In this document: positions 36,451 through 53,035 of the stretch, one piece after another | How the letters are laid out: the number at the start of each line of letters is the position of its first letter | How positions within the stretch are numbered: position 1 is the first letter of the stretch | Assembly: GCF_009729855.1 (NCBI RefSeq) | Contig: NZ_WODA01000007.1 | Location: 1-64,000, forward strand | Length of the DNA: 64,000 bases | Source of the DNA: Agromyces luteolus | Lineage (GTDB): Bacteria > Actinomycetota > Actinomycetes > Actinomycetales > Microbacteriaceae | Direction of reading: 5' to 3' | Position numbers and translations under genes: made by a program | The notes under the pieces: model-generated | Databases searched by the model: none | Told to the model about the DNA's origin: nothing | The model's input: the letters and a program-made list of their open reading frames with translations, nothing else

Positions 36451-36479
36451 ACTCGATCGGACAGTGGGGGACCGGGTGA
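36447..36479 (+). other. Ten-codon bridging reading frame
   Basis: ATG at 36447 overlaps the FHA gene stop (ATGA) and the frame MNSIGQWGTG ends in a TGA that overlaps the phosphatase GTG start (GTGA). It could carry ribosomes from one gene to the next by termination-reinitiation. It may equally be chance. Confidence 0.3.
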
Positions 36480-37282: not shown

Positions 37283-37303
37283 TCCCGCCCGACGCACCGG
37301 ACC

Positions 37304-37309
37304 TAGAAT
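37304..37309 (+). promoter_or_regulatory. -10 box upstream of the kinase gene
   Basis: TAGAAT fits the -10 pattern and would start a transcript near 37316, giving a 5' leader of about 58 nt that ends with GGGAGG just before the kinase GTG. This would let the kinase and the downstream genes be expressed apart from the FHA-phosphatase pair. Confidence 0.5.
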
Positions 37310-37373
37310 TGGGCGCGAGACCCGACGCGTCGCCGCGCCGGGACGCAACGCACCAGAGGCCAGCGGGAGGATC

Positions 37374-38789
37374 GTGTCGAGGCGACTGCCGTCAACCCCG
37401 CCCAACCTGCCCGGGTTCTCGTTCATCCGGGTCCTCGGTTCGGGCGGGTTCGCCGACGTCTTCCTCTACGAGCAGAACATGCCGCGGCGTCTGGTCGCCG
37501 TGAAGGTCCTCCTCGCCGAAGTCGTCAACGATGAGGTCAGGCAGATGTTCCAGGCCGAGGCGAACCTGATGGCGCAGCTGTCGAGCCATCCGTCGATCCT
37601 CACCGTCTACCAGGCCAGCGTCGCCGCCGACGGGCGGCCGTACCTCGTCATGGAGTACTGCTCCGCGACCCTCGGGCAGCGCTACCGGGCCGTGCAGCTC
37701 CCGCTGGCCGAGGTGCTCTCGATCGGCGTGCGGATCGCGAGCGCCGTCGAGACCGCGCATCGACAGGGCGTGCTGCACCGGGACATCAAGCCGTCCAACA
37801 TCCTGACGACCGCGTACGGCCATCCCGTGCTCTCCGACTTCGGCATCGCCGCGACCCTCGGGCAGGCCGAGGCGAGCGACGCCGTCGGGCTCTCCGTGCC
37901 GTGGTCGGCCCCGGAGGTGCTCCTCGACGAGGTCGCGGGCACGGTCGCGAGCGAGGTCTGGTCGCTCGGCGCGACGGTCTACTCGCTCCTCGCGGGACGC
38001 AGCCCGTTCGAGGTCCCCGGCGGCGACAACGGCACGGTCGCGCTGGTCGGTCGCATCGAGAAGGCGAAGGTGCCGCCGACCGGCCGCCCCGACGTCCCGC
38101 GGAGCCTCGAGGCCGTGCTCTCCCGTGCGATGTCCAAGCGGCCGACCGATCGCCAGGGCAGCGCCCTCGAGTTCATCCGCGACCTGCAGGCGGTCGAGGA
38201 GGAGCTCGCTCTCCCGCAGACCCCGCTCGAGGTCGCCATGGACGACTGGGCGCTCGCCACCGCGGTCGACCTCGACGAACGCACGCGCATCGGCGCCGGC
38301 ACCAGCGTGGCCGCCGCCTCGGGGCGCTCGCGACGGCGCCGGGCCGGAGCATCCGCCCGCCCGATGCCGCGCAGCCTGGACTCGCACTCCCAGGGCTCGC
38401 TGTCGAGCCGCGCCCGCACCACGCCGCCCTCGACCGGACGGCTCATCCTGGGGGTCGCGATCGCCGCCGCCGTCTTCGTCGGGCTCGTCGTCGCGGGACT
38501 CCTGACGGTCGCCGGGAACGCCGGCGACATCCCGGTGGTCGCCGACGTCCGGGCGAGCACCGACGGCGCCACGGTCGAGTTCGCGTGGGACGACCCCGGC
38601 CTCCGGCAGGGGGACGCCTACATCGTCACCGTCCAGGGCGAGTCCTTCGCGCCGCAGCGGGCCGCCGAGTACGCGCTGAGCCTCGACGAGCCGGGCACCG
38701 TCTGCGCCACCGTCACCGTGTGGCGTGACGGCAGGACCGGCGAGCCGAGCGCGGAGCGCTGCACCGAGGTGGACGAGGTGCCGCGATGA
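37374..38789 (+). CDS. Transmembrane Ser/Thr protein kinase with Fn3-like ectodomain
   Basis: A 471-residue Hanks-type kinase. The catalytic domain (about 12-275) has the glycine loop VLGSGGFADVF, VAVKVL (ATP lysine, about 44), HRDIKPSN (about 136-143), SDFGIAA (about 156) and the APE-equivalent WSAPEVLL. A linker rich in Arg and Ser (about 315-350) leads to a single transmembrane helix (about 356-378). The remaining 90 residues are outside the cell, with a beta-sandwich pattern and two cysteines (TVCATV and ERCTEV), resembling one fibronectin type III domain rather than PASTA repeats. Its stop overlaps the giant protein start (ATGA). It likely phosphorylates proteins read by the two FHA proteins. 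Confidence 0.93.
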   Translation: MSRRLPSTPPNLPGFSFIRVLGSGGFADVFLYEQNMPRRLVAVKVLLAEVVNDEVRQMFQAEANLMAQLSSHPSILTVYQASVAADGRPYLVMEYCSATLGQRYRAVQLPLAEVLSIGVRIASAVETAHRQGVLHRDIKPSNILTTAYGHPVLSDFGIAATLGQAEASDAVGLSVPWSAPEVLLDEVAGTVASEVWSLGATVYSLLAGRSPFEVPGGDNGTVALVGRIEKAKVPPTGRPDVPRSLEAVLSRAMSKRPTDRQGSALEFIRDLQAVEEELALPQTPLEVAMDDWALATAVDLDERTRIGAGTSVAAASGRSRRRRAGASARPMPRSLDSHSQGSLSSRARTTPPSTGRLILGVAIAAAVFVGLVVAGLLTVAGNAGDIPVVADVRASTDGATVEFAWDDPGLRQGDAYIVTVQGESFAPQRAAEYALSLDEPGTVCATVTVWRDGRTGEPSAERCTEVDEVPR

Positions 38790-41700
38790 ACCTCCGGACC
38801 CTCTGGGCGCGGCGGCGGTCCGCGATCGTGACCGGTGCCTCGGTCGCGGCGGTGGTCGCGCTCGTGGCCGGGGTCGCCGTGGCATCCGGAGGGTACACGG
38901 CCCAGCGGGTCGACCTCGGGGACGCGTCGGTGTGGGTGCCCAACGACGGACTGCAGACCGTGGGCCGCGCGAACACGGCGGTGCACGAGCTGAACGCGGT
39001 GGTCGACACCGGCGGCACTCGGTCCGAGATCGTCCAGAGCGGCGCGACGGTGCTCGTCCTGGACCGCGACCGGGCGAGCGTGGGGATCGTCGATCCCACC
39101 ACGTCGACCGTCACCGCCACGGTCGCGGTTCCCGGCGAGGCCCGGATCGCGCTCGCCGGCGACCGCGTCGTCGTCACGGCGGGCGGCGACCTCTGGGTCC
39201 GGCCGATCGAGGAGTTCGCGTCGTTCGTCGCGGAGGACGACCCCGAGCTGTCCTTCGGGGCCGGTTCGGTGGTGTCTGTGGACGAGGCGGGACGCATCCT
39301 CGCGTTCACGCCGACCACCGGCGTCGTCTCACGCGTGTCGGCGGCGGATCCCGACCGGACGCAGGCCACCTGGGAGCTCGATCCGCTCGACGACGACGTC
39401 GTGACGCAGATCACGTCGGTCGCCGGCCGATGGGCGATCCTCGACGAGGAGGCGGCGACCGTAACGTTCGAGGGCGGCGCGAGCACGTCCCTCGAGGGAC
39501 TCGCCGATGCCGACGACGACCCGGTGCTCCAGCGGCCCGCCACGACGGGCGACGCCGTGCTGCTGGCGACCCGGCAACGACTGCTGGAACTCCCGTTCGA
39601 CGGTTCGGAGCCCTCGGAGCTGTCGGGCGACCACGGCGGGGAACCGGCCGAACCCGTGGTGCACGCGGACTGCCGCCATGCGGCGTGGGGCGACGGCATC
39701 GCCTGGCGCGAGTGCGACGGCGACGCCGGCTCCGTCGTGCCCCTCATCGGCGCCGAGGGCGCGCTGTCCCCGGACTTCCGGGCCAACGGCGAGACGGTCG
39801 TCCTGAACGACCGGCGGTCGGGCGCGACATGGGCGGCATCCGGCGACTACGGCCTGATCGACAACTGGGACGACCTGCTCGCGATCGAGCGCGACGACGA
39901 GACGGTCGAGCAGAACGATCCGGACGCGACCCCCACGATCGAGAAGGCCCAGGTGGCTCCGGTCGCGCTCGACGACGAGTTCGGCGCCCGGCCCGGACGG
40001 GCCACGCTGCTCCCCGTGCTGCTCAACGACTACGACGCCAACGGGGACGTCCTCGTCGTCTCGGGCGTCGACGGCGACCTGCCCGACGGCGCCCGGCTCG
40101 ACCTGGTCGCCGACCGGCAGCAGGTGCAGCTCACGCTCGGCGAGGCCGCACAGGGCGCGTTCGAGTTCGGCTACACGATCGACGACGGACGCGGCGGCAG
40201 CGCGCGCGCACTCGTGAGCGTCGGCGTCCGGCCGCCCGAGGAGAACGAGGCGCCGCGACAGGTCCGCGAGAGCCGCGCGATGGTCGAGCAGGGCGGGCGC
40301 GTCACGACGGCCGTGCTCGGCGAGTGGGTCGACCCCGACGGCGATCCGGTCTTCCTGCGTCGCGCGGCCGTGGACGCGCCCGACCGCGTCTCGTCGACGG
40401 CCGACGGGGTCGTCGTGTTCGACGAGGCCGGCGAGGGTGCGTCGCGGACGGTGTCGCTCTCCGTCTCGGACGGGCGGGACGATGGCACCGGTGCACTGGT
40501 GGTGGCGGTGCGCGCGCCGGGCGAGGCGCCGCTCATCGCCGAGTCGTTCGTGGCGCTCGCCACCGCCGGGGAGGAGATCGAGCTCGAACCGCTCCGTCAC
40601 GTCCGCGGCGGCACGGGGATGCCGCACCTGAGCGCCGTGCCCTCGAAGCCCGGAGCGGTGATCACGCCCGACTTCGACGCGGGGACGTTCCGCTTCCGGA
40701 CCGACGACGTCCGCACGCACTACCTCGAGTACACCGTGACCGACGAGGGACGCACCGCCACCGGACTCGTCCGGGTCGAGGTGTCGGCTCCGCCGGAGCG
40801 CGACACGACCCCCGTCACCGTGCCGCACACGGCGTTCCTCCGGCTCGAGCAGCCGATGGAGGTGGACGTCCTCGCGTCGGACATCGACCCGACCGGCGGA
40901 CTGCTCATCATCACCGGCCTCGCCGAGGAGGTCGATCCCGCGCTCCGGGTCGAGGTCGTCGAGCATCGCATCCTCCGCGTCACGCTGATGCAGCCGCTCG
41001 CGACCGGCTCCACGACCTTCGACTACCGGGTGAGCAACGGCCTCGCCGACGCCGTGGGCTCGGTCACGGTGGTCGAGGTGCCGAGGCCCGATCGATTCCA
41101 GCCGCCGGTCGCCGTGGCCGACACGGCCTCGGCGCGGACCGGCGACGTCATCGACATCCCCGTCCTCGACAACGACGAGCACCCCGACGGCGACCGGCTC
41201 ACGCTCTCGCCGGATCTCGTCGAGGAGCCCGACGCCGGCCCGCTGTTCACCTCCGGATCACGCCTCCGCTATCACGCACCCGACCGGCCGGGCGAGTTCG
41301 AGGCGGTGTACCGCGTGGAGGGACCCGACGGCCAGTTCGGCACCGCGTCGGTCCGGATCACGGTCCGGGACGCGGATGCCGAGAGCAACTCGCCACCCGT
41401 CCCGCGGACCGCCACGGCGCGCGTCCTCGCAGGGGGCACCGTGCGCATCCCGATCGCGCTCGGCGGAATCGACCCCGACGGCGATTCCGTGCAGCTCATC
41501 GGCCAGGAGTCGAATCCCGAGCGGGGCTCCGTCGTGGATCGGGGCGCGGACTGGCTCGAGTACCACGCCGGCGAGTACTCCGCGGGCACGGACACGTTCG
41601 CCTACACGGTCGTCGACGCCCTGGGGGCTCGTGCGACGGGCACCGTGCGGGTCGGAGTCGCACCCGGACTGGAGGGCGCGCGGCATCCGGTCGCCATCGA

Positions 41701-44650
41701 GGACGAGATCACCGTCCGTCCGGGCCGGACGATCGCCGTCCGCGTGCTCGAGAACGACACCGACCCGGACGGCTCGGCCCTGCGCCTCACGGGCGTCGAG
41801 GCCAACACTCCCGGCACCGTGGTCGAACAGGTCGACGACCTGGTGATCGTCGACGTCCCGAGCGGCCCCGGACTCTACGGCGCCATCTACACGATCTCGA
41901 ACGAGCGCGAGGCGAGCGCCTCGAGCTTCGTGCGCATCACGGCCGACCCCGACGCGCCGCTCAGCAGGCCGGAGGCGGCCGACGTCGTCCTGAGCCTCAC
42001 CGACGTCCTCGACGAGGACGAGGTCGACGTCGACGTGCTGGACGAGGTCTTCATCGCCGATGCGGACGCGGCCGACGCGGACGTCGCGCTGATCCCGGGC
42101 TACTCGGACGGAGCGCGCGTCTCGGGCGGCACGGTGCACGTCGAGGTCCAGGACCGGCGCCGCATCGTGCCCTATTCCGTCGCCCACCCCGACGACCCGG
42201 CCCTGCGCGCCTACGCGTTCATCTGGGTGCCCGGGCGCGACGATGCGCTGCCGCAGCTGCGCCGGGACGCACCGCCGGTCGAGGTGACGACCGGCGAGGA
42301 GGTCGTCCTCGACCTGGAGGACTACGTCGTCGCGGCCTCCGGACGGCCCGTCCGCCTGACCGACGCCGCGACGGTGCGGGCGTCCCATTCCGACGGGAGC
42401 GACCTCGCGGTCGACGCCGACACGGTGCGGTTCCGCAGCGAGGCCGGCTACTTCGGACCGGCGTCGATCTCGTTCACCGTCACCGACGGCGATTCCGCGG
42501 ACGACCCGGAGGGGCGCACCGGCACCATCGTCATCCCCATCGACGTCACCCCGAGGGAGGGGCAGCCGCCGGCGTTCGAGGGCGGGGTCATCGACTTCGA
42601 GCCCGGGCAGGAGAAGGCCATCGACCTCGAACGCCTGACCAGCCTCCCCGGTTCCGACGACGCCGACCTGGAGTACCGCCTCATCGGCGAGCTCCCCGAC
42701 GGATTCGGCGCTGCCCTGGACGGCAGCGAACTGCGGGTCCGCGCGGCGGAGTCGACCCCGCAGGGCACCCGCGCCGGCATCACCGTCGGCGTGACCGCCG
42801 ACGGAGTCGAGGGCACCCCCGGCCGCATCGAGCTGCGCGTCGTCCCGTCCACGCGTCCCGTCGCGCGGCCCGCTCCGGACGTCGCGGTCGCGCCGCGCGG
42901 GCTCACGACCTCGGTCGACGTGCTCGAGAACGACGCCGCGGGCAACCCGTTCCCCGGCACGCCCCTCCGAGTGCTCCGCGTCCGCGGGCTCGGCGCCGAG
43001 AACCTCCCCGCGGGCCTCACCGTCGTGCCCGACGAGGACCGGTCGCGTCTCTCCGTCACGGTCTCGCCCGGTGCGGAGCCGGTGAACACGACGCTCGAGT
43101 ACCAGGTCGCCGACGCCACGAACGACTCGAGTCGCTATGCGTGGGGGACCGTGACGATCTCCGTCCAGGATCGGCCGGATCCCGTCACGGACGCGCGGCT
43201 GACGGCGTTCCGCGACGGCGAGCTCGACGTCGCGTTCGGGGCGGGGGCATCGAACAACTCGCCGATCGAGGCCTATCGGATCAGCCTGCTCGACCCCGAC
43301 GGCGGTGCGGAGCTCGCCGCGACGGAGTGCGCGGCGACCACGTGCACCGTGCCCACGCTCGGAAACGGCCCCGGCGCGGCGGTGATCGTGCGCATGCAGG
43401 CGCGCAACGCGATCGGACTCGGCGACCCGGTCCAGCTCCCGACCCCGGTCTGGTCGGACGTCATCCCCCCGGCCGCGACCGGCCTGCGGGCCGTGCCGCT
43501 CGACGGGCGACTCCGGGTCGAATGGGTTCCCGTGTCCACGGGGACGGGGAGCCCCGTCAGCACCTACGTCGTCTGGATCGCGGGGTCCCCGATCGAGGTC
43601 GTCGCCGACCGGGCCTGCACGGCGTCCGTCTGCTCCGTCGAATCGCAGGGGCTCGCGAACGGCAGTTCGGTCGGCATCACGGTCAGCGCCCGCAACGGGG
43701 CGCTGCCCGCGCTCGCCGCGTGGACCGAGGCGAGCACGACCGGCACGCCGTTCGGCACGCCGATCGCGGGCGGGATCACGGTCGACGCCGATCCCGCGGC
43801 CGGCACGGTCGTCGTGTCCTGGTCGCCATTCGGCGGGAACGGCGATGCGATCGGCGGGTACTTCGTGCAGCGCCTCGTCGAGGGCGAGACCTCGATCCCC
43901 GGGGGAGCGCAGGCCTGCTCGGTGACGAGCCCGGCACCGGGCTCGGTCGTCGCCCCGACCGTCGGCGGCACGGTCGCCGAGATGGTCCGCGTCGGCGCGG
44001 GCGCCTCGAGCGTGCAATTCGGCGGCACGAGCACGGAGTCCGCTCGATACGGCTTCGTCGTCTGGGGTTGGAACCGCGCCGGCTGCGTGTCCACCGAGGT
44101 GGCGACGACCGTGGTCCGCCCGGCGCCCGGCGCGATCTCGAGCGTCCGCAGCGGCATGGACTGGTCGAACCCGGAGACCTGGGACCGCTACATCGACGAC
44201 GTCGACGGCGGAACGAAGCGACTCCAGATCATCGCGGTCGACGCCGCAGGCGCGCGCGTCGGCTCGCCGAAGGACTTCTCGGGCTCCGGATGGCTGCGCC
44301 AGCTCCTGAACCGTCCGTTCGGCGAGACCGCGCGCTTCCAGGTCCGCAGTTGCACGGTCTGGGGCACCTGCGGCCCGTGGTCCGGCACGTTCCCCGGCGA
44401 GGAGTCGCCGACGCTGACCTTCGCCCTCCCGGGCCGCGCGTACGACGACGCCACCTCGACGTGGTCGTGGACCGCCGCACCCGCGAACAACGGCCTTCCG
44501 GCCGCCTTCCGCTGCGGCGTCGACGGCGACCGCGTCGGCCGCACGGCACAGGGTGCGACCTCCTGCCAGGTCAACGGCGCCAAGCCCGGCGACCTCGTCT
44601 GGTTGGATGTTGAGGTCGCGGGCGTCACCGCGAGGTTCGAGTCCCGATGA
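38786..44650 (+). CDS. Giant N-terminally anchored Ig-like/Fn3 repeat protein
   Basis: A 1954-residue protein. A basic start (LRTLWARRR) and one hydrophobic helix (about 13-34) suggest an N-in, C-out membrane anchor. Residues about 40-385 form a beta-rich, possibly propeller-like region. Tandem domains then begin near 390, 487, 581, 676, 773, 869, 968, 1065, 1166, 1262 and 1360, many with the signature PVA..D, a Val/Pro..VL.ND..DPDGD loop and a closing F.YT..D strand pair, as in bacterial tandem Ig-like (cadherin-like) domains with acidic calcium-type loops. At least three Fn3-like domains follow (from about 1464, 1562 and 1663) with paired cysteines. No LPXTG motif or C-terminal helix is present. 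It is probably a surface fibre or scaffold, coupled to the kinase and MoxR genes. Confidence 0.88.
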   Translation: MNLRTLWARRRSAIVTGASVAAVVALVAGVAVASGGYTAQRVDLGDASVWVPNDGLQTVGRANTAVHELNAVVDTGGTRSEIVQSGATVLVLDRDRASVGIVDPTTSTVTATVAVPGEARIALAGDRVVVTAGGDLWVRPIEEFASFVAEDDPELSFGAGSVVSVDEAGRILAFTPTTGVVSRVSAADPDRTQATWELDPLDDDVVTQITSVAGRWAILDEEAATVTFEGGASTSLEGLADADDDPVLQRPATTGDAVLLATRQRLLELPFDGSEPSELSGDHGGEPAEPVVHADCRHAAWGDGIAWRECDGDAGSVVPLIGAEGALSPDFRANGETVVLNDRRSGATWAASGDYGLIDNWDDLLAIERDDETVEQNDPDATPTIEKAQVAPVALDDEFGARPGRATLLPVLLNDYDANGDVLVVSGVDGDLPDGARLDLVADRQQVQLTLGEAAQGAFEFGYTIDDGRGGSARALVSVGVRPPEENEAPRQVRESRAMVEQGGRVTTAVLGEWVDPDGDPVFLRRAAVDAPDRVSSTADGVVVFDEAGEGASRTVSLSVSDGRDDGTGALVVAVRAPGEAPLIAESFVALATAGEEIELEPLRHVRGGTGMPHLSAVPSKPGAVITPDFDAGTFRFRTDDVRTHYLEYTVTDEGRTATGLVRVEVSAPPERDTTPVTVPHTAFLRLEQPMEVDVLASDIDPTGGLLIITGLAEEVDPALRVEVVEHRILRVTLMQPLATGSTTFDYRVSNGLADAVGSVTVVEVPRPDRFQPPVAVADTASARTGDVIDIPVLDNDEHPDGDRLTLSPDLVEEPDAGPLFTSGSRLRYHAPDRPGEFEAVYRVEGPDGQFGTASVRITVRDADAESNSPPVPRTATARVLAGGTVRIPIALGGIDPDGDSVQLIGQESNPERGSVVDRGADWLEYHAGEYSAGTDTFAYTVVDALGARATGTVRVGVAPGLEGARHPVAIEDEITVRPGRTIAVRVLENDTDPDGSALRLTGVEANTPGTVVEQVDDLVIVDVPSGPGLYGAIYTISNEREASASSFVRITADPDAPLSRPEAADVVLSLTDVLDEDEVDVDVLDEVFIADADAADADVALIPGYSDGARVSGGTVHVEVQDRRRIVPYSVAHPDDPALRAYAFIWVPGRDDALPQLRRDAPPVEVTTGEEVVLDLEDYVVAASGRPVRLTDAATVRASHSDGSDLAVDADTVRFRSEAGYFGPASISFTVTDGDSADDPEGRTGTIVIPIDVTPREGQPPAFEGGVIDFEPGQEKAIDLERLTSLPGSDDADLEYRLIGELPDGFGAALDGSELRVRAAESTPQGTRAGITVGVTADGVEGTPGRIELRVVPSTRPVARPAPDVAVAPRGLTTSVDVLENDAAGNPFPGTPLRVLRVRGLGAENLPAGLTVVPDEDRSRLSVTVSPGAEPVNTTLEYQVADATNDSSRYAWGTVTISVQDRPDPVTDARLTAFRDGELDVAFGAGASNNSPIEAYRISLLDPDGGAELAATECAATTCTVPTLGNGPGAAVIVRMQARNAIGLGDPVQLPTPVWSDVIPPAATGLRAVPLDGRLRVEWVPVSTGTGSPVSTYVVWIAGSPIEVVADRACTASVCSVESQGLANGSSVGITVSARNGALPALAAWTEASTTGTPFGTPIAGGITVDADPAAGTVVVSWSPFGGNGDAIGGYFVQRLVEGETSIPGGAQACSVTSPAPGSVVAPTVGGTVAEMVRVGAGASSVQFGGTSTESARYGFVVWGWNRAGCVSTEVATTVVRPAPGAISSVRSGMDWSNPETWDRYIDDVDGGTKRLQIIAVDAAGARVGSPKDFSGSGWLRQLLNRPFGETARFQVRSCTVWGTCGPWSGTFPGEESPTLTFALPGRAYDDATSTWSWTAAPANNGLPAAFRCGVDGDRVGRTAQGATSCQVNGAKPGDLVWLDVEVAGVTARFESR

Positions 44651-44669
44651 ATCCCACGAGGAGCACCGC

Positions 44670-45641
44670 ATGACCATGACCCCCGAGGACGCCACCCGAT
44701 TCGCGTCGAACCTCGACGAGCTCGTGGGAGCGGTCGAGGAGATCCTGCTCGGCAAGAACCGCGTCATCCGCCTCGCCTTCACCGCCCTGCTCAGCGAGGG
44801 CCACCTCCTGCTCGAGGACGTCCCCGGCACGGGCAAGACCTCGCTCGCGCGTGCCATGGCGCAGTCCGTCGCGGGCTCGAGCAACCGCGTGCAGTTCACG
44901 CCCGACCTCCTCCCCGGCGACATCACCGGCGTCTCGGTCTACGACCAGCGGTCGGGCGCCTTCGAGTTCCACCCGGGCCCCGTGTTCGCGAACATCGTGC
45001 TGGCCGACGAGATCAACCGCGCGAGCCCGAAGACCCAGTCGGCGCTGCTCGAGGTGATGGAGGAGGGCCAGGTCACGGTCGACGGGCAGACGCACGTCGT
45101 CGGCCGGCCGTTCATGGTCATCGCGACGCAGAACCCCGTCGAGCAGGCGGGCACGTACCGCCTGCCCGAGGCGCAACTCGACCGGTTCCTCATGCGGACC
45201 TCGATCGGGTATCCCGACCACGCGTCGACGATCCGGATCCTCGAGGGGACCGACCAGCGGGCGCACGACCATCGGGTCGACCCGCGCCTCGACGCCGAGC
45301 AGATCGTCGAGATGGCGGCGCTGGCGCGCACCGTGTACGTGGACCCCACCATCAACGACTACGTGTCGCGGCTGGTCGACGCGACCCGCAGCGCGACCGA
45401 GGTCCGCCTGGGGGTGAGCGTCCGCGGTGCGCTGTCCCTCGTGCGCGCCGCGAAGACCCACGCCGCCGGACGAGGACGGCACTACGTCGTGCCCGACGAC
45501 GTCAAGGCGCTCGCCGAGCCGGTCCTCGCGCACCGGCTGATCCTCGATCCCGAGGCGGAGTTCGACGGCGTGACGGCATCGAACATGATCGCGCAGGTGC
45601 TGATCGAGACGCCGCCGCCATCAGCGAGGCAGGCCGGGTGA
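44670..45641 (+). CDS. MoxR family AAA+ ATPase
   Basis: Cytosolic chaperone-like ATPase of 323 residues. Walker A is EDVPGTGKTSLA (about 48-59), Walker B is IVLADEINRA (about 110-119), sensor 1 is IATQNP (about 153) and the C-terminal lid contains VRLGVSVRGALSLVRAAK (sensor 2 arginine). MoxR proteins usually act with VWA or DUF58 proteins in maturing other complexes. GAGGAG lies 6 nt before the ATG. The gene follows the giant protein by 19 nt and overlaps the DUF58 gene by 4 nt. Confidence 0.95.
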   Translation: MTMTPEDATRFASNLDELVGAVEEILLGKNRVIRLAFTALLSEGHLLLEDVPGTGKTSLARAMAQSVAGSSNRVQFTPDLLPGDITGVSVYDQRSGAFEFHPGPVFANIVLADEINRASPKTQSALLEVMEEGQVTVDGQTHVVGRPFMVIATQNPVEQAGTYRLPEAQLDRFLMRTSIGYPDHASTIRILEGTDQRAHDHRVDPRLDAEQIVEMAALARTVYVDPTINDYVSRLVDATRSATEVRLGVSVRGALSLVRAAKTHAAGRGRHYVVPDDVKALAEPVLAHRLILDPEAEFDGVTASNMIAQVLIETPPPSARQAG

Positions 45642-47038
45642 CCTTCCAGACGCGCACGTCGATCCCCGAGGAGGCTGCGAAGCAGGGCTTCCTCGCCGTG
45701 ACGATCGCGCGCGCGGTCGTCGCGGTCCGGAGCGCGGTGGCCGTCGTCGAGCGATGGACGCGCGCGGGCCGGAGCGTCGTGACGCCCCTCGGGTGGGGCG
45801 TGCTCGCGGCATCCGTCTTCGCCCTCGTCCTCGGGTACGGGTTCGGCTGGCTCGAGCTCGCGCTCATCGGATGGGGGGCCGCGGCCGTGCTCGCGCTCGC
45901 ATCCGCATGGCTGGTCGGACGCGGGGCCGGCGCGATCGAGCTCACGCTCCCCGTGCCGCGCGTGGCCGTCGGGGAGGCCGCCGAGGCGCGTCTCGTCGCG
46001 CGCAACCCCGGGCGGCGGCGGTTCTCGGGCGCGCGGATCGAGGTGCCCGTGGGACGGCGCGTCGTCTCGCGGTTCTTCCCCGCACTGCCTCGCGGCGGGA
46101 CGCTGGACGAACGGGTGCCGATCCCGACCGAACGACGCGGCGTCGTCGAGGTCGGCCCAGTGCGCACCGTGCGCGCCGACCCGGTCGGGCTGATGCGACG
46201 CGAGATCGTGTGGTCCGACGTCCGGATGCTGCACGTGCACCCTCGTACGATCGCGGTGTCCGCCCTCAGCACCGGCTTCCTCCGCGACCTCGAGGGTTCG
46301 CCGACCCGGGACCTCACGGCGAGCGACATCGCGTTCCACGCGCTGCGCGAGTACCAGCCGGGCGACGACCGCCGGTACATCCACTGGAGGAGTTCGGCCA
46401 AGACCGGGACGTTCATGGTCCGCCAGTTCGAGGAGACCCGACGCAGTCGACTGATGGTGCTGCTCGACCTCGCGGCGGACGCCTACGAGGACGAGGAGGA
46501 CTTCGAACTCGCCGTGAGCGTCGCGGCCTCCATCGGCGCTCGCGCGATCCGCGACGCCCGGAGTCTCGCGTTCGTCGTCTCGGGGCGGGACCGCCTCGGC
46601 CGCGAGCCCGACACGCGAGGCGAGGCCGGGTCGCGTCGCGGGCTCGCGAACCCGGCCGCGCTCGGCGGCGTCGGCGCGCCACGACGGCGTCAGCCGGCCA
46701 TCGGCGAACTGCCCACCGCCTCGCGCGACCGGTTGCTCGATGCGCTGTGCCTGGTCGAGGCGGACGACCATGCGTCGGGCCTCGCCGACACGGCGCGTGC
46801 GGCCGCCGAGTCGGTGTCGGGCGTGTCGCTCGCCTTCGTCGTCACGGGCGGCGCGCGCGGCGTCGCCGACCTCCGGCAGGCGGCCTCGCGCCTGCCGCTC
46901 GGGATCGAGGCCGTGGCGGTGCGCTGCTCGGCGGAGGGCGAGGCGACGGCGCGATCGGTCGGCGGACTGTCGGTCTACGGGATCGGCTACCTCGAGGACC
47001 TCACGGCCATGCTCGCGAGGACGGCGTCCGTCGCATGA
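45638..47038 (+). CDS. DUF58 domain-containing membrane protein
   Basis: A 466-residue protein with two transmembrane helices (about 48-68 and 70-90) and a cytosolic remainder. The DUF58 signature is present as LREYQPGDDRRYIHWRSSAK (about 245-264), within a beta-sandwich plus VWA-like fold that often carries a metal site. DUF58 proteins are the standard partner of MoxR ATPases and of transglutaminase-like membrane proteins, which are its two neighbours, each overlapping by 4 nt. The exact function of this trio is not known; envelope protein maturation is the usual suggestion. Confidence 0.92.
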   Translation: MTFQTRTSIPEEAAKQGFLAVTIARAVVAVRSAVAVVERWTRAGRSVVTPLGWGVLAASVFALVLGYGFGWLELALIGWGAAAVLALASAWLVGRGAGAIELTLPVPRVAVGEAAEARLVARNPGRRRFSGARIEVPVGRRVVSRFFPALPRGGTLDERVPIPTERRGVVEVGPVRTVRADPVGLMRREIVWSDVRMLHVHPRTIAVSALSTGFLRDLEGSPTRDLTASDIAFHALREYQPGDDRRYIHWRSSAKTGTFMVRQFEETRRSRLMVLLDLAADAYEDEEDFELAVSVAASIGARAIRDARSLAFVVSGRDRLGREPDTRGEAGSRRGLANPAALGGVGAPRRRQPAIGELPTASRDRLLDALCLVEADDHASGLADTARAAAESVSGVSLAFVVTGGARGVADLRQAASRLPLGIEAVAVRCSAEGEATARSVGGLSVYGIGYLEDLTAMLARTASVA

Positions 47039-49413
47039 GCACGGCCACGGGTGCACGCCGTCCGGACTCCGCGCGGGGTCGGGCGCCGCTCAGGATCGCG
47101 GGCGCGAGCCTCGGCTCCGCGCTCGTGAGCACGGCGATGATCATCGCCGTCGCGGGAACGGCGATGCTCCCGTGGTGGCCGATCTACGAGAGCCCGGCGT
47201 TCGTGCACGCCGCGGGGGTGGCGATCCTCACCGGGGCGGCCATCGGCTTCGCCGGCGCCGTGTGGTCCTGGCCGTCCTGGGCGGTGGCGTCGGCGATCGC
47301 GGCGGCGTACCTCGTCCTGGGCGTGCCCGTAGCGGTGCCGACGAGCGCCTACGCCGAGGTCCTGCCGACCGCCGAGGGGCTCGTCGAGCTCGTCGCCGCG
47401 GTGGCGCTGTCGTGGAAGCAGCTCGTCACCATCTCCGTCCCGGTCGGCTCGTACCAGGCGCTGCTCGTCCCGCCGTTCGTGCTCGGAGTGATCGCGACCG
47501 CGACCGCCGTCACGATCGCGCTCCGCACGCGCCGCCCGTCGACGGCGCTGCTGCCGCCCGCCGTGCTGCTCGTCGTCGGCGTGGTGCTCGGGGTCGTGCA
47601 CGACGAAGCGGCGTTCGAGGCGGGCGTCGCGTTCCTCGTCACCGCGATCGCGTGGCTCGTGCGCGTCGCCATCGCCGAACGTCGGCGGGCCGTCGTCGAG
47701 CACTCCGGCGAGTCGACGTTGGCGGACGTGCGTCGTATCGTCGGCGCGACCGCCGTCGCGGCCGTCGCCCTCGTCGGTGCGACCGCTGCCACGTTCGTGC
47801 TCCCGCCCGGGCCCAGGGACGTGGTCCGGGCCGAGCTCCGACCCCCGTTCGAACCGAGCGACTACGACAGTCCGCTGGCGGCGTTCCGGGCCGCATTCGC
47901 GCCCGAGGTGGCCGAGGACGAGATGCTCCGCGTCACCGGGCTCCCCGCCGGGGCCGGGTTGCGGATCGCCACGCTCGACACGTACGACGGCATCGTCTAC
48001 TCGGTGGGAGACAGCGATCGCTCGGGCGCATCCGGACAGTTCTCGCGACTGCCCTACCGACTCGACCAGACCGCGACCCCGGGCGAGGAGGTCCGGCTCG
48101 ACGTCGCCGTGCTCGGCTACGACGACGTCTGGGTGCCCGGCGTCGGCCGGCTCGAACGCATCGCCTTCGCCGGCCCACGGGCAGGCGAGCTCGAGGACGG
48201 GTTCGCGTACAACGACGTGACCGGCACCGCCGGCGTGCGATCCGGCCTCCGGTCGGAGGACCGGTACACGGCCGACTCGATCGCCTGGATCGAACCGGTC
48301 GACCTCGCCGAGCTCCGGCCCGGCGGCGCGGTCCTGCCGGATTCCCCGGATCCGCCCGACGCGCTGCTCAGGCTGCTCGACCGCTGGACGCGCTCCTCGG
48401 ACGAGCCGGGCGTGCGGCTCGCCGGTCTCGTCGAGGGCCTCCACCGCGAGGGATACGTCAGCCACGGCGTCGGCGAGGACGAGGTGCCCAGTCGATCGGG
48501 CCACGCCCTCGACCGTCTCGCGGAGCTCGCGACGGCCAAGCCGATGGTCGGCGACGGAGAGCAGTACGCCGTCGCGGCGGCGATGCTCGCGCGCGCCATC
48601 GGCTTCCCGACGCGGGTCGTGGTCGGCTACCTCCCGGCGGACGGCGACGGCGACGGCGACGGCGACGGTTCCGGTTCCGGCGACGGCGACTCCCGCTCCG
48701 CCGGCGACGGCGACGTGGTCTTCCGCAGCGCCGACCTGCAGGCGTGGATCGAGGTCCAGGCCGAGGACGGTGCGTGGATCGCGGTGGATCCGAACCCGGA
48801 GGTCCGGCCGATCCCGGAGCGGCAGCCCGACGAGCCGACCGTGGTCTCCCGGCCGCAGTCCGCGCTGCCGCCCCCCGAGGACCCGACGCCGGTCGACGAC
48901 CTGGCCGCCGAGCCGGACTCGGGCTCCGAGGACCCGGACCGGGGCGCGGGATGGCTGGACGCCATCCTGGCCGTCCTCCGCATCGCCGGCATCGTGCTCG
49001 CCGCACTCGCCCTCCTCGCCAGTCCCTTCCTCGCGGTCATCGCTGCGAAGGCCCGCCGTCGACGCCTGCGCCGTCGGGCTCCGACGCCCGAGGAGCGCAT
49101 CGAGGGCGGATGGGAGGAGTTCGCCGACCAGGCGACGGACTACGGCTACCCGATGGCGCAGACCGCGACGCGCGCCGAGCAGGCCGCGGTCGTCGGCGGC
49201 CTCGGTCCGGCGGTGCTCGCCTCGGTCGTGGACCGCGCCGTGTTCGGGCCGGACGGTCCGGGTGACGGCGACGATGAACGCGTCTGGGCCGCGGTGGGCG
49301 AGTTGCAGCGGCGCATGGACGAACCGCGGACGTGGCTCGAACGCGCCCGAGCGCGCGTCTCGCTCGGTTCGCTCGGCGGGTACGCTGGCTCGCGGAAGGG
49401 AGCCGGGACGTGA
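47035..49413 (+). CDS. Transglutaminase-like membrane protein lacking catalytic Cys and His
   Basis: A 792-residue protein with about 6 N-terminal transmembrane helices (to about residue 265), a large outside region, one further helix (about 645-668) and a cytosolic tail with a DUF4129-like arrangement. The transglutaminase core is recognisable: GDGEQYAVAAAMLARAIG, PTRVVVGYLP, then LQAWIEV and VDPNPE. The position normally held by the nucleophilic cysteine is G508 and that of the histidine is Q569; only the aspartate (D585) remains. It should therefore not be an active transglutaminase or protease and may act as a binding scaffold. A Gly-Asp repeat (537-552) is inserted between core strands. 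Confidence 0.87.
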   Translation: MSTATGARRPDSARGRAPLRIAGASLGSALVSTAMIIAVAGTAMLPWWPIYESPAFVHAAGVAILTGAAIGFAGAVWSWPSWAVASAIAAAYLVLGVPVAVPTSAYAEVLPTAEGLVELVAAVALSWKQLVTISVPVGSYQALLVPPFVLGVIATATAVTIALRTRRPSTALLPPAVLLVVGVVLGVVHDEAAFEAGVAFLVTAIAWLVRVAIAERRRAVVEHSGESTLADVRRIVGATAVAAVALVGATAATFVLPPGPRDVVRAELRPPFEPSDYDSPLAAFRAAFAPEVAEDEMLRVTGLPAGAGLRIATLDTYDGIVYSVGDSDRSGASGQFSRLPYRLDQTATPGEEVRLDVAVLGYDDVWVPGVGRLERIAFAGPRAGELEDGFAYNDVTGTAGVRSGLRSEDRYTADSIAWIEPVDLAELRPGGAVLPDSPDPPDALLRLLDRWTRSSDEPGVRLAGLVEGLHREGYVSHGVGEDEVPSRSGHALDRLAELATAKPMVGDGEQYAVAAAMLARAIGFPTRVVVGYLPADGDGDGDGDGSGSGDGDSRSAGDGDVVFRSADLQAWIEVQAEDGAWIAVDPNPEVRPIPERQPDEPTVVSRPQSALPPPEDPTPVDDLAAEPDSGSEDPDRGAGWLDAILAVLRIAGIVLAALALLASPFLAVIAAKARRRRLRRRAPTPEERIEGGWEEFADQATDYGYPMAQTATRAEQAAVVGGLGPAVLASVVDRAVFGPDGPGDGDDERVWAAVGELQRRMDEPRTWLERARARVSLGSLGGYAGSRKGAGT
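48643..48690 (+). repeat. Hexanucleotide tandem repeat within the transglutaminase-like gene
   Basis: Four GGCGAC units, two GGTTCC units and two more GGCGAC units lie in a row, coding for (Gly-Asp)4 (Gly-Ser)2 (Gly-Asp)2. The unit is two codons, so gain or loss of copies keeps the frame and changes only linker length. It is a likely slippage site. Confidence 0.9.
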
Positions 49414-49997
49414 ACTGCCGGATCTGCGGTGCGACGTTGCCCGAGGGGGCGATGTTCTGCGGCGAGTGCGGAAGCTCGACGTCCGCGACGCCCGAGTCGC
49501 GCCGGCCCCACGATCCTCGGCCGGGAGACACCTACGTCATCCATCGGTCCGATTCCGGCGTGCTGAGCGTGCCGATCGGCGAGGCGGTCGAGGCCGGGAG
49601 TGCGGACCCGGCAGTGGAGGCCGCGCCGGTCCCGGAATCGGCGCCGACCATCGAACCCGCGGATGCGGCATCCGCCCGCTTCGTCCTGACCTTCACCACC
49701 GGTGAGGTGGTGACCGTCCACGGCACCGGTCTCGTCGGTCGCCGCCCGCTGGCGGAGCCCGGCGAGGCGTTCGACCACCTCGTGCAGATCGTCGATCGGG
49801 GCCTCTCGGTGTCGAAGACCCACCTCGAGTTCGGCGAGCACGACGGCGACCTGTGGGTCGCCGACCGGTTCTCCGCGAACGGCACCGTCGTCCGGCGGCC
49901 CGGCGAGGGCGGGGTCCGGTGCGAGCCCGGCCGTCGCGTGCTCGTTCCGCGGGGCAGCCGGGTCGAGATCGGCGAGCAGGCGTTCGTCGTCGCCTGA
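49410..49997 (+). CDS. Zinc-ribbon and FHA domain protein
   Basis: A 195-residue cytosolic protein. The N-terminus is a zinc ribbon with two CxxC knuckles (CRICG at 3-7 and CGECG near 18-22). A Pro/Glu/Ala-rich linker (about 30-90) precedes the FHA domain (about 95-190), with VGRRPLAEPG, LSVSKTHLEFG and RFSANGTVV holding the phosphothreonine-binding Arg, Ser-His and Asn-Gly. It resembles the adaptor-type FHA proteins of actinobacterial kinase clusters and could link kinase output to the FtsK-like ATPase encoded next. The GTG start overlaps the upstream stop, with AAGGGAG 7 nt before it. Confidence 0.88.
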   Translation: MNCRICGATLPEGAMFCGECGSSTSATPESRRPHDPRPGDTYVIHRSDSGVLSVPIGEAVEAGSADPAVEAAPVPESAPTIEPADAASARFVLTFTTGEVVTVHGTGLVGRRPLAEPGEAFDHLVQIVDRGLSVSKTHLEFGEHDGDLWVADRFSANGTVVRRPGEGGVRCEPGRRVLVPRGSRVEIGEQAFVVA

Positions 49998-50098: not shown

Positions 50099-53035
50099 AT
50101 GACGGATGCCGCCACGAGCCTCGAGGCCCTGCCGGCGCTCCACGTGCCGCCCCTCCCGACCGAGCCCGCGCGTTCCCCCTTCCCGTGGCTCGCGACGGCC
50201 GCGCCGGTCGCCGGGGCCGTGGCGATCTGGGCGATCACGGGCTCGGTGGTCTCGCTCGCCTTCGCCGCGCTCGGCCCGCTCGTGGCGATCGCCGCCGTGC
50301 TCGACGCGCGCCGCACCGCTCGGCGCACGCGACGGCGGCAGCTCGTCCACCGCGAGGGCGAGTTCGGCCGGCTCCGCTCGGAGGTGGCCCGGCGCCACGA
50401 CCTCGAGCGGGTCGCGGCGTGGCGCCGGTCGCCCCCTGCCCGCGCGCTCGCGAGCCATGGTGCTCCGGCCTGGTCGTTCCCGCTGCCGGAGGCGGTCGTG
50501 GTCGGCTCGGGGATCGTCCGGAGTCGCCTGTCGATCGAGGGCGTGCGGGTCGAGGATCCCGATGCGGTCCGACTGGCCGCGGATGCCGCGGTGCTCGCCG
50601 ACGCGCCCGTGTGCGCGCCGCTCGCCGGGGGCATCGGCTTCGTCGGGGAGCCTGCGCTCGCCCGGGCGTCGGCTCGCGCGGCGATCGTCCAGGTCGCGGA
50701 GGCGACCGACCCGTCGCGGTGCCGCATCGTCGGCCCGTCGACGGCGTGGGACTGGCTCGTCGACCTCCCGCACCGGTCCTCGACGGCGGATGCCGCCGTG
50801 CTCCGCGTGGTCGAGGCGGTCGCCGGAGCGGGCGTCTCCGACGCGGCGGCGTCGGCGCGGGCCGAGGTCGGCGACCGCGACGGCGCCGTGATCGCGGTCG
50901 CGCCCGATGCGGCGTCCCTCCCGCCCGGGGTCCGCACCGTCGTCGAGGTGATGGCGCCGCGGAGCGCGCTCCTCCACGTGATCGGTGCGGACTCCCGCGC
51001 GCTCGAGCCGGAACTGCTGTCCCAGGCGGAGGCGGGGCGCGCAACGGATCGGCTCGCGCGCATCGCCGCGCGTGCGGGCATCGCATCGGGGCCGGCGGTG
51101 CTCCCCGACTCGATCGGGCTCGGCGGACTGCTGCCGGCCCCCGATCCGACGGCGGACCGATCGAGCCTCTCCGCGACGATCGGCGTCGGCGCCGACGGGC
51201 CGGTCGCGATCGACCTCGTCGCCGGCCCGCATGCGATCGTCGCCGGCACCTCGGGCAGCGGGAAGAGCGAGCTGCTCGTGGCCTGGATCGCCGCCATGGC
51301 GGCGCGATACGCACCCGACCGGGTGGCGTTCCTGCTCGTCGACTTCAAGGGCGGCGCGGCCTTCGAACCCGTGCGCGTGCTGCCGCATGCCGTCGGCCTG
51401 GTCACCGATCTCGACGAGGACGAGGCGGCGCGCGCCGTGGAGAGCATCCGCGCGGAACTTCGTCATCGCGAGCGCGTCCTGGCCGAGTCCGGGGCGCGGA
51501 GCATCACCGAGCTCTCCGGAGCGGTGACGCTTCCCCGGCTGGTGGTCGTCGTCGACGAGTTCCAGGCGATGATGGAGCGATTCGCGGAGCTCGGTGCCGT
51601 GGTGGCGGACGTCGCGGCGCGCGGCCGATCGCTGGGCGTGCACCTCGTGCTCGCGGCGCAGCGCCCGAACGGCGTCGTGCGCGAGCAGGTGAGCGCGAAC
51701 TGCGGCATCCGGATGTCCCTGCGCGTCCTCGATCGTGCGGACGGCGTCGCGGTGCTCGGCGTCGACGGGGCCGAGCGGCTCGACCCGAGCCGCCCGGGGC
51801 GTGCGCTGGTCGACCCCGGCGACGGTCGCGTGGTCGAGTTCCAGTCCGCACTCGCGGCCCGAGCGGAGATCGCGGGGATCGCGGCAGCACACGCCGGGTC
51901 CGCGCCGCCGCGGCGTCCGTGGCTCGATCCGCTGCCCTCGAGCATCGGACCCGACGACGTCGACGCCGTACTCGGAGCGGACGGGGCAGGGGGAGGTGCG
52001 GTCGACTCGACGGGGTCCGCCGCGCTGATCCTCGGTGTCGCGGACGAGCCCGCGGCCCAGCGTCGGATCGTCGCGACCTGGACGCCGGCGGTCGACGGGG
52101 CGCTGGTGGTGCTCGGCGCACAGGGTTCCGGACGGACCGCCCTCATCGAGGCGCTCGCGATGCAGGTCGCGCGTCGCCACGGCACCGCAGCGGTGCTGCG
52201 GGTCGAGGGCGCGCGCAGCGCCGTGTGGGATGCGCTCGCGACGCTCCGACGACGCACCACGGGACAGGCTGGGCCCGACGAGGAGGCCTCGGCCGTGCGA
52301 CTCGTGCTGGTCGACGACGTCGAGCTGCGCTTCGCGGGGTGGCCGGAGGAGCACCGGCTCGCCGCGCTGGAGGCGCTCGGCGAGCTGATCCGGGCGAGCC
52401 GCGCCGGCGGACCGGCGGTCGCCCTCGCGGCCGGACGTTCCGCCGCGCTCGGCTCGGCCGTCCGCGACGGTGCGGCCGTCCACGTGCTGCTGCGGCACGC
52501 GAGTCGCGGCGATCTCGTGCACGCCGGCGGCGACGGCCGCCTGCATCGCGGGGCCGCGCCGCCGGGTGCCGGTCAGTGGCGCGGGCACCCTGCCCAGTTC
52601 CTCCGCGCCGACCGCCCGACGGCTCCCGCGCCGCGGGTCGAGGCGCCGCCGCTCCGATTCGACACGGCCCGCCCCGTCGCCGTCGCATCGGCGCGACCGG
52701 GCGTCGACGCGGACGCGATCGGCCGGATCGCGCCCGAGGTCGAGCTGATCCGCCTCGCCGACGGCCCGGACGCCGCGCGGCGGGCACGGCACGCGATCGA
52801 CTCCGGTGGCGGCGGTGTCGTGATCGTCGGCGACGCCGATGCCTGGGCCGCCGACTGGGGCCTCGCCGCCGCGGCCCGCTCGCGCGCCGACCTCGTCGTC
52901 CATGGCAGCGGTCCCGAGTCGCGTGCGCTGGTGCGCGACGCCGGCATCCTGCCGCTGCTCGACGTCGATCGCGACCAGTGCTGGTTCACCGGTGTCGACC
53001 GCACGACGGAACGAGCGGCCTGGCCGGTCGCATGA
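50099..53035 (+). CDS. FtsK/SpoIIIE ATPase resembling EccC of type VII secretion
   Basis: A 978-residue membrane-anchored motor. Two hydrophobic helices (about 28-70) are followed by an N-terminal region and then tandem FtsK-like domains. The first has Walker A GTSGSGKSE (383-391) and Walker B VVVVDEF (about 481-487), and is complete. The second has a Walker A, GAQGSGRTAL (about 673), and Walker B LVLVDDVE. The third is shortened and has no P-loop, only a strand pair ending VVIVGDADAW. Three ATPase units after two helices is the EccC layout, where the first unit powers export. No WXG100, EccB, EccD, EccE or MycP gene is nearby. It starts 101 nt after the FHA gene with a poor ribosome site (GAGG). 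Confidence 0.87.
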   Translation: MTDAATSLEALPALHVPPLPTEPARSPFPWLATAAPVAGAVAIWAITGSVVSLAFAALGPLVAIAAVLDARRTARRTRRRQLVHREGEFGRLRSEVARRHDLERVAAWRRSPPARALASHGAPAWSFPLPEAVVVGSGIVRSRLSIEGVRVEDPDAVRLAADAAVLADAPVCAPLAGGIGFVGEPALARASARAAIVQVAEATDPSRCRIVGPSTAWDWLVDLPHRSSTADAAVLRVVEAVAGAGVSDAAASARAEVGDRDGAVIAVAPDAASLPPGVRTVVEVMAPRSALLHVIGADSRALEPELLSQAEAGRATDRLARIAARAGIASGPAVLPDSIGLGGLLPAPDPTADRSSLSATIGVGADGPVAIDLVAGPHAIVAGTSGSGKSELLVAWIAAMAARYAPDRVAFLLVDFKGGAAFEPVRVLPHAVGLVTDLDEDEAARAVESIRAELRHRERVLAESGARSITELSGAVTLPRLVVVVDEFQAMMERFAELGAVVADVAARGRSLGVHLVLAAQRPNGVVREQVSANCGIRMSLRVLDRADGVAVLGVDGAERLDPSRPGRALVDPGDGRVVEFQSALAARAEIAGIAAAHAGSAPPRRPWLDPLPSSIGPDDVDAVLGADGAGGGAVDSTGSAALILGVADEPAAQRRIVATWTPAVDGALVVLGAQGSGRTALIEALAMQVARRHGTAAVLRVEGARSAVWDALATLRRRTTGQAGPDEEASAVRLVLVDDVELRFAGWPEEHRLAALEALGELIRASRAGGPAVALAAGRSAALGSAVRDGAAVHVLLRHASRGDLVHAGGDGRLHRGAAPPGAGQWRGHPAQFLRADRPTAPAPRVEAPPLRFDTARPVAVASARPGVDADAIGRIAPEVELIRLADGPDAARRARHAIDSGGGGVVIVGDADAWAADWGLAAAARSRADLVVHGSGPESRALVRDAGILPLLDVDRDQCWFTGVDRTTERAAWPVA

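What the first reader, a model, noticed from the sequence alone, without database searches (positions are those of the whole stretch)
50099..53035. An orphan EccC-like motor without WXG100 or other type VII genes
The protein has two N-terminal helices, a complete FtsK domain, a second P-loop domain and a vestigial third, which is the EccC plan. Yet no WXG100-sized ORF fits the 101-nt gap before it or the 157-nt gap after it, and EccB, EccD, EccE and MycP are absent. Either the substrate is encoded elsewhere, or the motor handles something else such as the giant repeat protein.
Basis: partly seen in the sequence, partly recalled or inferred. Interest (0 to 1): 0.7.

Follow-up and report, generated by a model that had tools for sequence, protein, structure and literature searches.

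The report
Secretion motor split from its substrate
A bacterial gene cluster carries a type VII-style protein-export motor with no cargo gene beside it, and in related genomes that motor is usually inherited together with one small cargo-like protein encoded at a distant locus, so the machine is probably not orphaned but scattered over the chromosome.

Summary
The 978-aa protein at 50099-53035 is an EccC/EssC-type ATPase: helical N-terminus as in EccC, DUF domain, intact D1, degenerate D2, P-loop-less D3. It is not a DNA-translocating FtsK. It ends a PFNA-type operon: FHA, phosphatase, kinase, giant Ig protein, MoxR, DUF58, transglutaminase, FHA, motor. No WXG100-like frame was found beside it here or in 42 related loci, so the local observation holds. 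'Without WXG100' fails for the genome, which has two. One of them, convergent with groEL ('GEW'), tracks the motor in 120 Microbacteriaceae genomes: present in 63 of 64 scored motor-positive and 8 of 41 motor-negative genomes (15 motor-positive unscored; shared ancestry not removed). In 14 of 41 loci the motor stands without giant protein, MoxR, DUF58 and transglutaminase beside it, and all 14 genomes have GEW, so the giant protein is an unlikely cargo. Best reading: a dispersed, phospho-regulated type VII-like exporter of GEW, with the FHA domain that relatives carry on the motor now in separate genes. Export is not shown; distance-matrix coevolution was not specific. New variant of a known kind.

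The parts
50099..53035 (+). EccC/EssC-like membrane ATPase, 978 aa (label here: EccX)
50186..50428 (+). two helices at the N-terminus (residues 30-47; 50-110, the second running on as a stalk)
   Evidence: AlphaFold model; region 6-324 aligns with EccC in the ESX-3/ESX-5 membrane complexes, Z about 18
50471..51088 (+). DUF (D0) domain between stalk and D1 (about residues 125-330)
51101..51898 (+). D1 ATPase (about residues 335-600), intact Walker A GTSGSGKS and Walker B DE
   Evidence: G386, G388, K389, D486, E487 invariant in 29 of 29
52016..52618 (+). D2, degenerate second P-loop domain (GAQGSGRT)
   Evidence: P-loop-like motif in 36 of 41 orthologues
52661..53032 (+). D3, vestigial, no P-loop
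   Evidence: GxxxxGK[ST] in 1 of 41; alignment to T. curvata EccC runs to residue 978
49410..49997 (+). zinc-ribbon + FHA protein directly upstream; in the other-family relatives scanned, FHA is fused to the motor
   Evidence: FHA 22.1 bits, cut-off 20.7; for the fused form
47035..49413 (+). TgpA-type membrane transglutaminase
45638..47038 (+). DUF58 protein
44670..45641 (+). MoxR AAA+ ATPase
38786..44650 (+). giant Ig/cadherin-like repeat protein, 1954 aa, hydrophobic segment near its N-terminus
37374..38789 (+). Ser/Thr protein kinase
36476..37282 (+). PP2C-type phosphatase
35332..36450 (+). second FHA-domain protein (FHA at residues 296-356), 25 nt before the phosphatase; probably first gene of the operon (inference)
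   Evidence: 27.9 bits, cut-off 20.7

Best explanation
EccX is the membrane ATPase of a type VII-like export pathway whose genes are scattered. Shown: it has the EccC module order with one intact ATPase domain (D1), and in Microbacteriaceae it is usually found in the same genomes as one WXG100 protein (GEW) that lies convergent with groEL and carries an invariant W-x-G and an invariant YxxxE near its C-terminus. Inferred: EccX forms a hexamer in the membrane; D1 supplies the power; D2/D3 no longer act as full ATPases but bind the GEW tail; the GEW dimer is passed across the membrane. The kinase and phosphatase set a phosphothreonine mark that the separate FHA proteins read, doing in trans what the fused FHA domain may do in relatives. 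The giant Ig protein, MoxR, DUF58 and transglutaminase are a lineage-specific envelope module, not the cargo.
For: EccC plan: profile 336 bits to T. curvata EccC, 258 YukB, 239 EccC5, 114 FtsK; model Z 35.5 over 609 residues to EccC ATPases 1-3 and Z about 18 for residues 6-324 to the ESX-3/ESX-5 EccC membrane part. Catalytic residues invariant in 29 of 29. Co-occurrence in 120 genomes: GEW in 54 of 55 scored strong-motor genomes (15 unscored) and 9 of 9 short-motor genomes, against 8 of 41 motor-negative; by genus 49/1 against 6/22, Fisher 5e-13. GEW is clearly told from other WXG100s fetched: 93 bits or more against 61 or less. GEW is predicted as a WXG100 hairpin, pLDDT 83.8, best matches CFP10-ESAT6 and EsxB, E 4.6e-3. 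YxxxE and WxG invariant in 24 of 24. Motor without giant/MoxR/DUF58/TGM beside it in 14 of 41 loci, all 14 GEW+. FHA fused to the related motor in 5 of 5 scanned other-family proteins.
Against: No binding or export shown. 8 motor-negative genomes keep GEW (six of 1.1-1.7 Mb, one 83% complete, one 97% complete), so GEW can exist without this motor. 15 of 70 strong-motor genomes were not scored for GEW. Shared ancestry is not removed from the test. Distance-matrix coevolution is not specific: ECC-GEW partial r 0.26 given GroEL (p 0.017) and 0.18 given RR (p 0.076), below MoxR-GEW 0.50 and TGM-GEW 0.44 given GroEL. At order level one genome (G277) has a motor relative (L175) but no GEW match; 14 further GEW-negative genomes outside f12 have a motor match of unresolved type; 8 have a GEW match but no motor match at 1e-30. 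EccX is far below the NCBIfam cut-offs for EccC/EssC.
Confidence: 0.52

Rival explanations
1. The motor exports or remodels the giant Ig protein of its own operon, so it is a secretion or assembly ATPase for a surface protein, not for WXG100.
For: Same locus in 26 of 41. ECC-TGM distance correlation is high (partial r 0.56 given GroEL). In L176 and L179, type VII-like clusters of other families, a large TM protein (three FN3 domains in L179) lies next to MoxR-DUF58-TGM.
Against: 14 of 41 motor loci lack the giant protein within about 12 kb upstream, though it was not searched for elsewhere in those genomes. The giant protein has its own hydrophobic N-terminal segment (sequence), as a Sec substrate would.
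Confidence: 0.15
2. EccX is a second motor or regulator serving the FHA-EssC type VII cluster at C15 in the same genome and its WXG100.
For: That cluster exists in this genome, and many Microbacteriaceae show both kinds of match.
Against: Several nearly complete genomes (G042, G058, G071, G084, 99-100%) list EccX but no 1500-aa EssC match in the rows shown, and each has exactly one WXG100, which is GEW. The row list is cut off at E about 6e-39.
Confidence: 0.12
3. EccX and GEW are both old core genes lost together in some lineages without working together.
For: GEW-profile matches are widespread in the order (247 of 297 genomes at E 1e-6). The coevolution test was not specific. GEW persists without the motor in 8 of 41 genomes.
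Against: Genus-level association is strong, and many of the GEW-negative genomes are not small (2-4 Mb).
Confidence: 0.21

Closest known systems
EccC of T7SSa / EssC of T7SSb
   Same: N-terminal membrane region, stalk, DUF, D1-D2-D3 order; intact D1; sequence and overall fold nearer to EccC than to FtsK
   Different: 978 aa, no P-loop in D3, no FHA on the protein, no WXG100/EccB/EccD found in the window; below NCBIfam cut-offs
T7SSd (Garrett et al. 2024, PMC11217815; abstract, sections 7 and 9 and passages seen)
   Same: Actinomycetota; kinase, giant Ig-like protein and EssC-type motor; no ubiquitin-like gene found (YukD search empty)
   Different: T7SSd has the WXG100 in the cluster and FHA on TsdC; TsdI is described with a C-terminal TM helix, whereas the giant protein here ends without an evident one (sequence); transglutaminase and MoxR are not mentioned in that paper
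PFNA operon of Bifidobacterium (PMC8430577, PMC6803598; passages seen)
   Same: kinase, giant repeat protein, MoxR-type ATPase, DUF58, transglutaminase in the same order, plus phosphatase and FHA genes
   Different: Ig/cadherin-like instead of FN3 giant; phosphatase and one FHA gene come first; EccC-like motor at the end, and 'FtsK' does not occur in either paper
DNA translocase FtsK
   Same: D1 fold (Z 29.9 over 265 residues)
   Different: Only D1 is shared; the genome has a separate, more distant FtsK-like hit (C24:202543-204147, not identified further)

Membership tests
EccC/EssC (named protein family) | Passes the curated NCBIfam cut-off for EssC, EccCa or EccCb | tested here: not met
   231/778, 186/509, 139/347 bits
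EccC/EssC (named protein family) | N-terminal membrane region + DUF + three tandem ATPase folds | tested here: met
   (6-324 and 336-978 both align with EccC structures)
EccC/EssC (named protein family) | Nearer to EccC than to DNA translocases by sequence | tested here: met
   336 against 114 bits
Type VII secretion system | WXG100 gene in the motor's cluster | tested here: not met
   none in 43 of 43 loci; 7 of 7 controls found, 3 of them independent of the models
Type VII secretion system | WXG100 with W-x-G and YxxxD/E elsewhere in the genome | tested here: met
Type VII secretion system | Motor-dependent secretion of the WXG100 | not testable with these tools
   needs an experiment
T7SSa | EccB and EccD present in the genome | tested here: inconclusive
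   No EccB match, but no control rang; no YukD-type match, control rang
T7SSa | EccE and MycP present in the genome | not tested
   only the window was scanned (and earlier), where neither appears
T7SSd | FHA domain on the motor | tested here: not met
   no FHA in the protein; FHA in the gene before it and in the gene before the phosphatase
T7SSd | Ser/Thr kinase and giant Ig-like protein in the cluster | tested here: met
T7SSd | TsdH small TM protein | not tested
PFNA-type operon | Order kinase - giant repeat protein - MoxR - DUF58 - transglutaminase | tested here: met
   homology to the Bifidobacterium proteins themselves was not tested

The most novel reading that the evidence does not exclude
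The PFNA operon, known as a bifidobacterial host-sensing cluster, is in Microbacteriaceae the envelope and regulatory half of an undescribed type VII subtype. Its motor has shed its FHA domain and working third ATPase, and its main substrate is a groEL-linked WXG100 encoded far away, so the system escapes searches that rely on gene neighbourhood. Related FHA-bearing motors with no WXG100 seen beside them, 15 of 16 next to a WhiB-like gene, occur in other families of the order, where GEW-type genes are also common.
Probability: 0.33. Interest if true: 0.8.

Novelty: new variant of a known kind. Interest (0 to 1): 0.6.

Why it matters
Type VII systems are usually recognised by the motor lying next to its WXG100 substrate. 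If motor and substrate are commonly split, as in the 43 loci examined here, such systems may have been missed in a large order of bacteria. It would also give a testable function to two things of unclear role: the PFNA operon and the WXG100 gene beside groEL. It turns 'what does an orphan EccC do' into one question: does GEW leave the cell through EccX?

Tried and rejected
DNA-translocating FtsK: rejected on profile scores and full-length fold; D1 alone does not separate the two (Z about 29-30 for FtsK and for EccCb1-D2).

Giant protein as cargo: weakened by the 14 loci without it.

Mirror-tree test as support for the ECC-GEW pair: did not help. ECC-GEW is no stronger than other pairs.

D1 tree (48 rows): the 23 Microbacteriaceae motors lie apart from 24 other rows at a 100/99 branch, but the FtsK-like row is on a very long branch and one long fragment (ESSCx_L152) falls on the other side, so I draw nothing more from it; midpoint root only.

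Giant-protein homology to the large TM proteins of L176 and L179: weak (24% over 172 aa, E 4e-5) or not significant (best E 0.015); used only as a lead.

Order-level classification of motors by E-value alone: given up, because EssC-type and EccX-type overlap outside Microbacteriaceae. Only two candidates per genome were scored there.

The sorting of the 120 genomes into 70 strong, 9 short and 41 none was done by eye from bits, coverage and open-frame length, whose row list is cut off. G088, put among the negatives, was later seen to score nearer the ECC model (404 against 196); it has no GEW, so moving it would add one motor+/GEW- case.

No paper found that links PFNA with type VII secretion. 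Searches: (listings; open-licence PubMed Central only, most subscription journals missing).
Full report
THE OBSERVATION. Pfam gives one FtsK_SpoIIIE domain. NCBIfam's best models are EssC (231 bits), EccCa (186) and EccCb (139), all far below their cut-offs, with FtsK at 53. A profile of 29 orthologues scores 336 bits against T. curvata EccC, 258 against YukB, 239 against EccC5 and 114 against FtsK. The AlphaFold model is good (mean pLDDT 86.7): residues 336-978 align with EccC ATPases 1-3 (Z 35.5, 609 residues) and 6-324 with the membrane part of EccC in ESX-3 and ESX-5 complexes (Z about 18), whereas FtsK matches only D1. D1 keeps G386, G388, K389, D486 and E487 in 29 of 29 sequences. A D2 P-loop-like motif is in 36 of 41 and a D3 P-loop in 1 of 41. 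Of the 55 genes called in the window, 41 were scanned and none is EccB, EccD, EccE or a mycosin-type protease; the rest are 223 aa or shorter.

THE OPERON. Upstream in one direction are an FHA-domain protein, a PP2C phosphatase, a Ser/Thr kinase, the giant Ig/cadherin-like protein, MoxR, DUF58, a TgpA-type transglutaminase and a zinc-ribbon/FHA protein. Kinase to transglutaminase is the gene order of the PFNA operon of Bifidobacterium (pkb2, fn3, aaa-atp, duf58, tgm, with prpC and fha in some species; PMC8430577 and PMC6803598, passages seen). PMC8430577 calls the cluster unique to bifidobacteria; 'FtsK' occurs in neither paper. The nearest named relative of the motor found is from Agromyces kandeliae (74% identity), so the window is probably from Agromyces (inference).

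THE REST OF THE GENOME. Two WXG100 genes: C8:121964-122218 (62 bits) and C15:68542-68796 (43 bits). The C15 gene lies about 4 kb from a 1493-aa EssC-type motor with an FHA domain, itself next to an RDD-FHA protein. No YukD-type match (B. subtilis control rang). No EccB match, but no control rang. The C8 gene is alone, convergent with groEL, with a histidine kinase and response regulator on its other side. I call it GEW.

THE FAMILY-WIDE TEST. In 120 Microbacteriaceae genomes I sorted by eye 70 with a strong EccX match, 9 with a short one and 41 without. WXG100 genes were listed and candidates fetched. In the fetched loci GEW separates cleanly from other WXG100s: 93 bits or more with groEL in view in all but one (L136), against 61 or less and no groEL. 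Result: strong motors, GEW in 54 of 55 scored, the one miss (G061) being 75% complete with no WXG100 match, and 15 unscored (each with at least one WXG100 match); short motors, 9 of 9; no motor, 8 of 41. Four of the strong genomes were scored. By genus: 49 with both, 1 motor only, 6 GEW only, 22 neither, Fisher 5e-13. This test does not remove shared ancestry. For some motor-negative genomes GEW was judged absent because the WXG100 hits lay near an EssC motor or scored under 30 bits, without fetching each one. Against the pairing: the 8 motor-negative genomes with GEW, six of them 1.1-1.7 Mb.

CONTEXT SWITCH. Of 41 motor loci with about 12 kb upstream in hand, 26 have the full module (giant, MoxR, DUF58, transglutaminase), 14 have none of it and 1 is unclear. 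Of the 14, 12 show the phosphatase and 7 an FHA match, read from that table. All 14 of those genomes are GEW+. The motor's steadier companions are therefore phosphatase, FHA and GEW, not the giant protein. None of 43 motor loci, the window included, has a WXG100-like frame, while all 7 control loci do; four of those controls had helped to build the models, three had not.

OTHER FAMILIES. The GEW profile matches 247 of 297 genomes of the order at E 1e-6; 10 of these matches are weaker than 2e-20 and may be other WXG100s. groEL was in view in 18 of 20 fetched GEW regions from other families. Of 20 motor regions fetched from other families, 16 match the EccX model better than the C15-type model, one is a tie and three go the other way by small margins. 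Five of five scanned proteins of the first sort carry an FHA domain. In 15 of these 16 loci an 82-83-aa WhiB-like gene was printed (Pfam Whib confirmed for one), and Tad-pilus-type genes were confirmed by Pfam in one (L173). No WXG100-like small gene was seen in these 16 loci, but the search there was less sensitive: it missed the WXG100-like genes of L176 and L179 that one search printed. So EccX looks like a cut-down form of an FHA-bearing motor, with FHA now in separate genes (inference). In L176 and L179, WXG100-like genes (Pfam 19-22 bits, below cut-off), an EssC-type motor, a large TM protein (three FN3 domains in L179, no Pfam hit in L176), MoxR, DUF58 and a transglutaminase lie together. 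This suggests that a PFNA-type module and a type VII cluster can share one locus.

ORDER-LEVEL CO-ABSENCE. All 22 genomes of family f12 lack a GEW match (by comparison with the handles), and the 16 of them whose match is printed show only D1 coverage in frames of about 1490-1550 aa. Eight f3 and three f4 genomes have neither match. Against: G277 has a motor relative (L175) but no GEW match; 14 further GEW-negative genomes outside f12 have a motor match whose type I could not resolve; 8 genomes have a GEW match but no motor match at 1e-30. Only two candidates per genome were scored.

WHAT DID NOT SUPPORT IT. The distance-matrix test gave ECC-GEW partial r 0.26 (GroEL as species proxy, p 0.017) and 0.18 (RR, p 0.076), n 36; MoxR-GEW (0.50, n 19) and TGM-GEW (0.44, n 22) were higher with GroEL as proxy. 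It does not single out the pair.

MECHANISM. Shown: module plan, intact D1, GEW fold by prediction (pLDDT 83.8; Foldseek best E 4.6e-3 to CFP10-ESAT6 and EsxB), invariant WxG and YxxxE in 24 of 24, co-occurrence. Inferred: hexamer, GEW as cargo, tail recognition by D2/D3, control by kinase, phosphatase and FHA in trans. That YxxxD/E is a type VII export signal and that EccC D3 binds the substrate tail is recalled knowledge; the title of entry 4n1a (EccC ATPases 2 and 3 with a signal sequence peptide) agrees.

COMPARISON. The nearest described subtype is T7SSd (PMC11217815; abstract, sections 7 and 9 and passages seen): WXG100, FHA-EssC, kinase, a small TM protein and a giant Ig-like protein thought to span the envelope. 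The window shares kinase, giant Ig protein and motor, but fails two defining features (FHA on the motor, WXG100 in the cluster), so I do not file it there. It works like a type VII motor as far as anatomy goes; membership of a named subtype is not met. The same paper reports a subtype (T7SSi) for which no WXG100 candidate was found in the cluster, so a motor without a local substrate has a precedent.

CHANGES AFTER RE-CHECK. I scanned the remaining larger window genes, which added the FHA gene at 35332-36450; qualified the order-level GEW count; and added the GEW-negative genomes with unresolved motor matches.

Noticed in passing
window 35332-49997: A PFNA-type operon outside Bifidobacterium; a paper calls the cluster unique to bifidobacteria (PMC8430577, passage).
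   Followed up: partly
L176 1610-15904; L179 1-14489: Type VII-like clusters with WXG100-like genes, EssC-type motor, a large TM protein (three FN3 domains in L179) and MoxR-DUF58-transglutaminase in one run.
   Followed up: partly
L163-L173, L175, L177, L180-L182: EccC-like motors of other families nearer to EccX than to the C15 type, 15 of 16 with a WhiB-like gene in the locus; FHA on all 5 scanned; Tad-pilus-type genes confirmed in L173.
   Followed up: partly
L011 7247-18311: Second, EssC-type cluster of this genome: FHA-motor 1493 aa, RDD-FHA protein, one WXG100; no YukD-type gene found in the genome.
   Followed up: no
L136 (G030, contig of 1,760,810 bases): Contig length equals that published for Pontimonas salivibrio, whose paper says it has no type VII system; here it has a short motor match and GEW.
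   Followed up: no
literature, PMC9415070 (passage): A WXG100 gene of Bifidobacterium longum rises 31-fold in stationary phase; whether it is the GEW orthologue was not tested.
   Followed up: no
L137 (G088): A 1324-aa motor about 2.5 kb from a WXG100-family gene without W-x-G scores nearer the EccX model than the C15 model (404 against 196).
   Followed up: no
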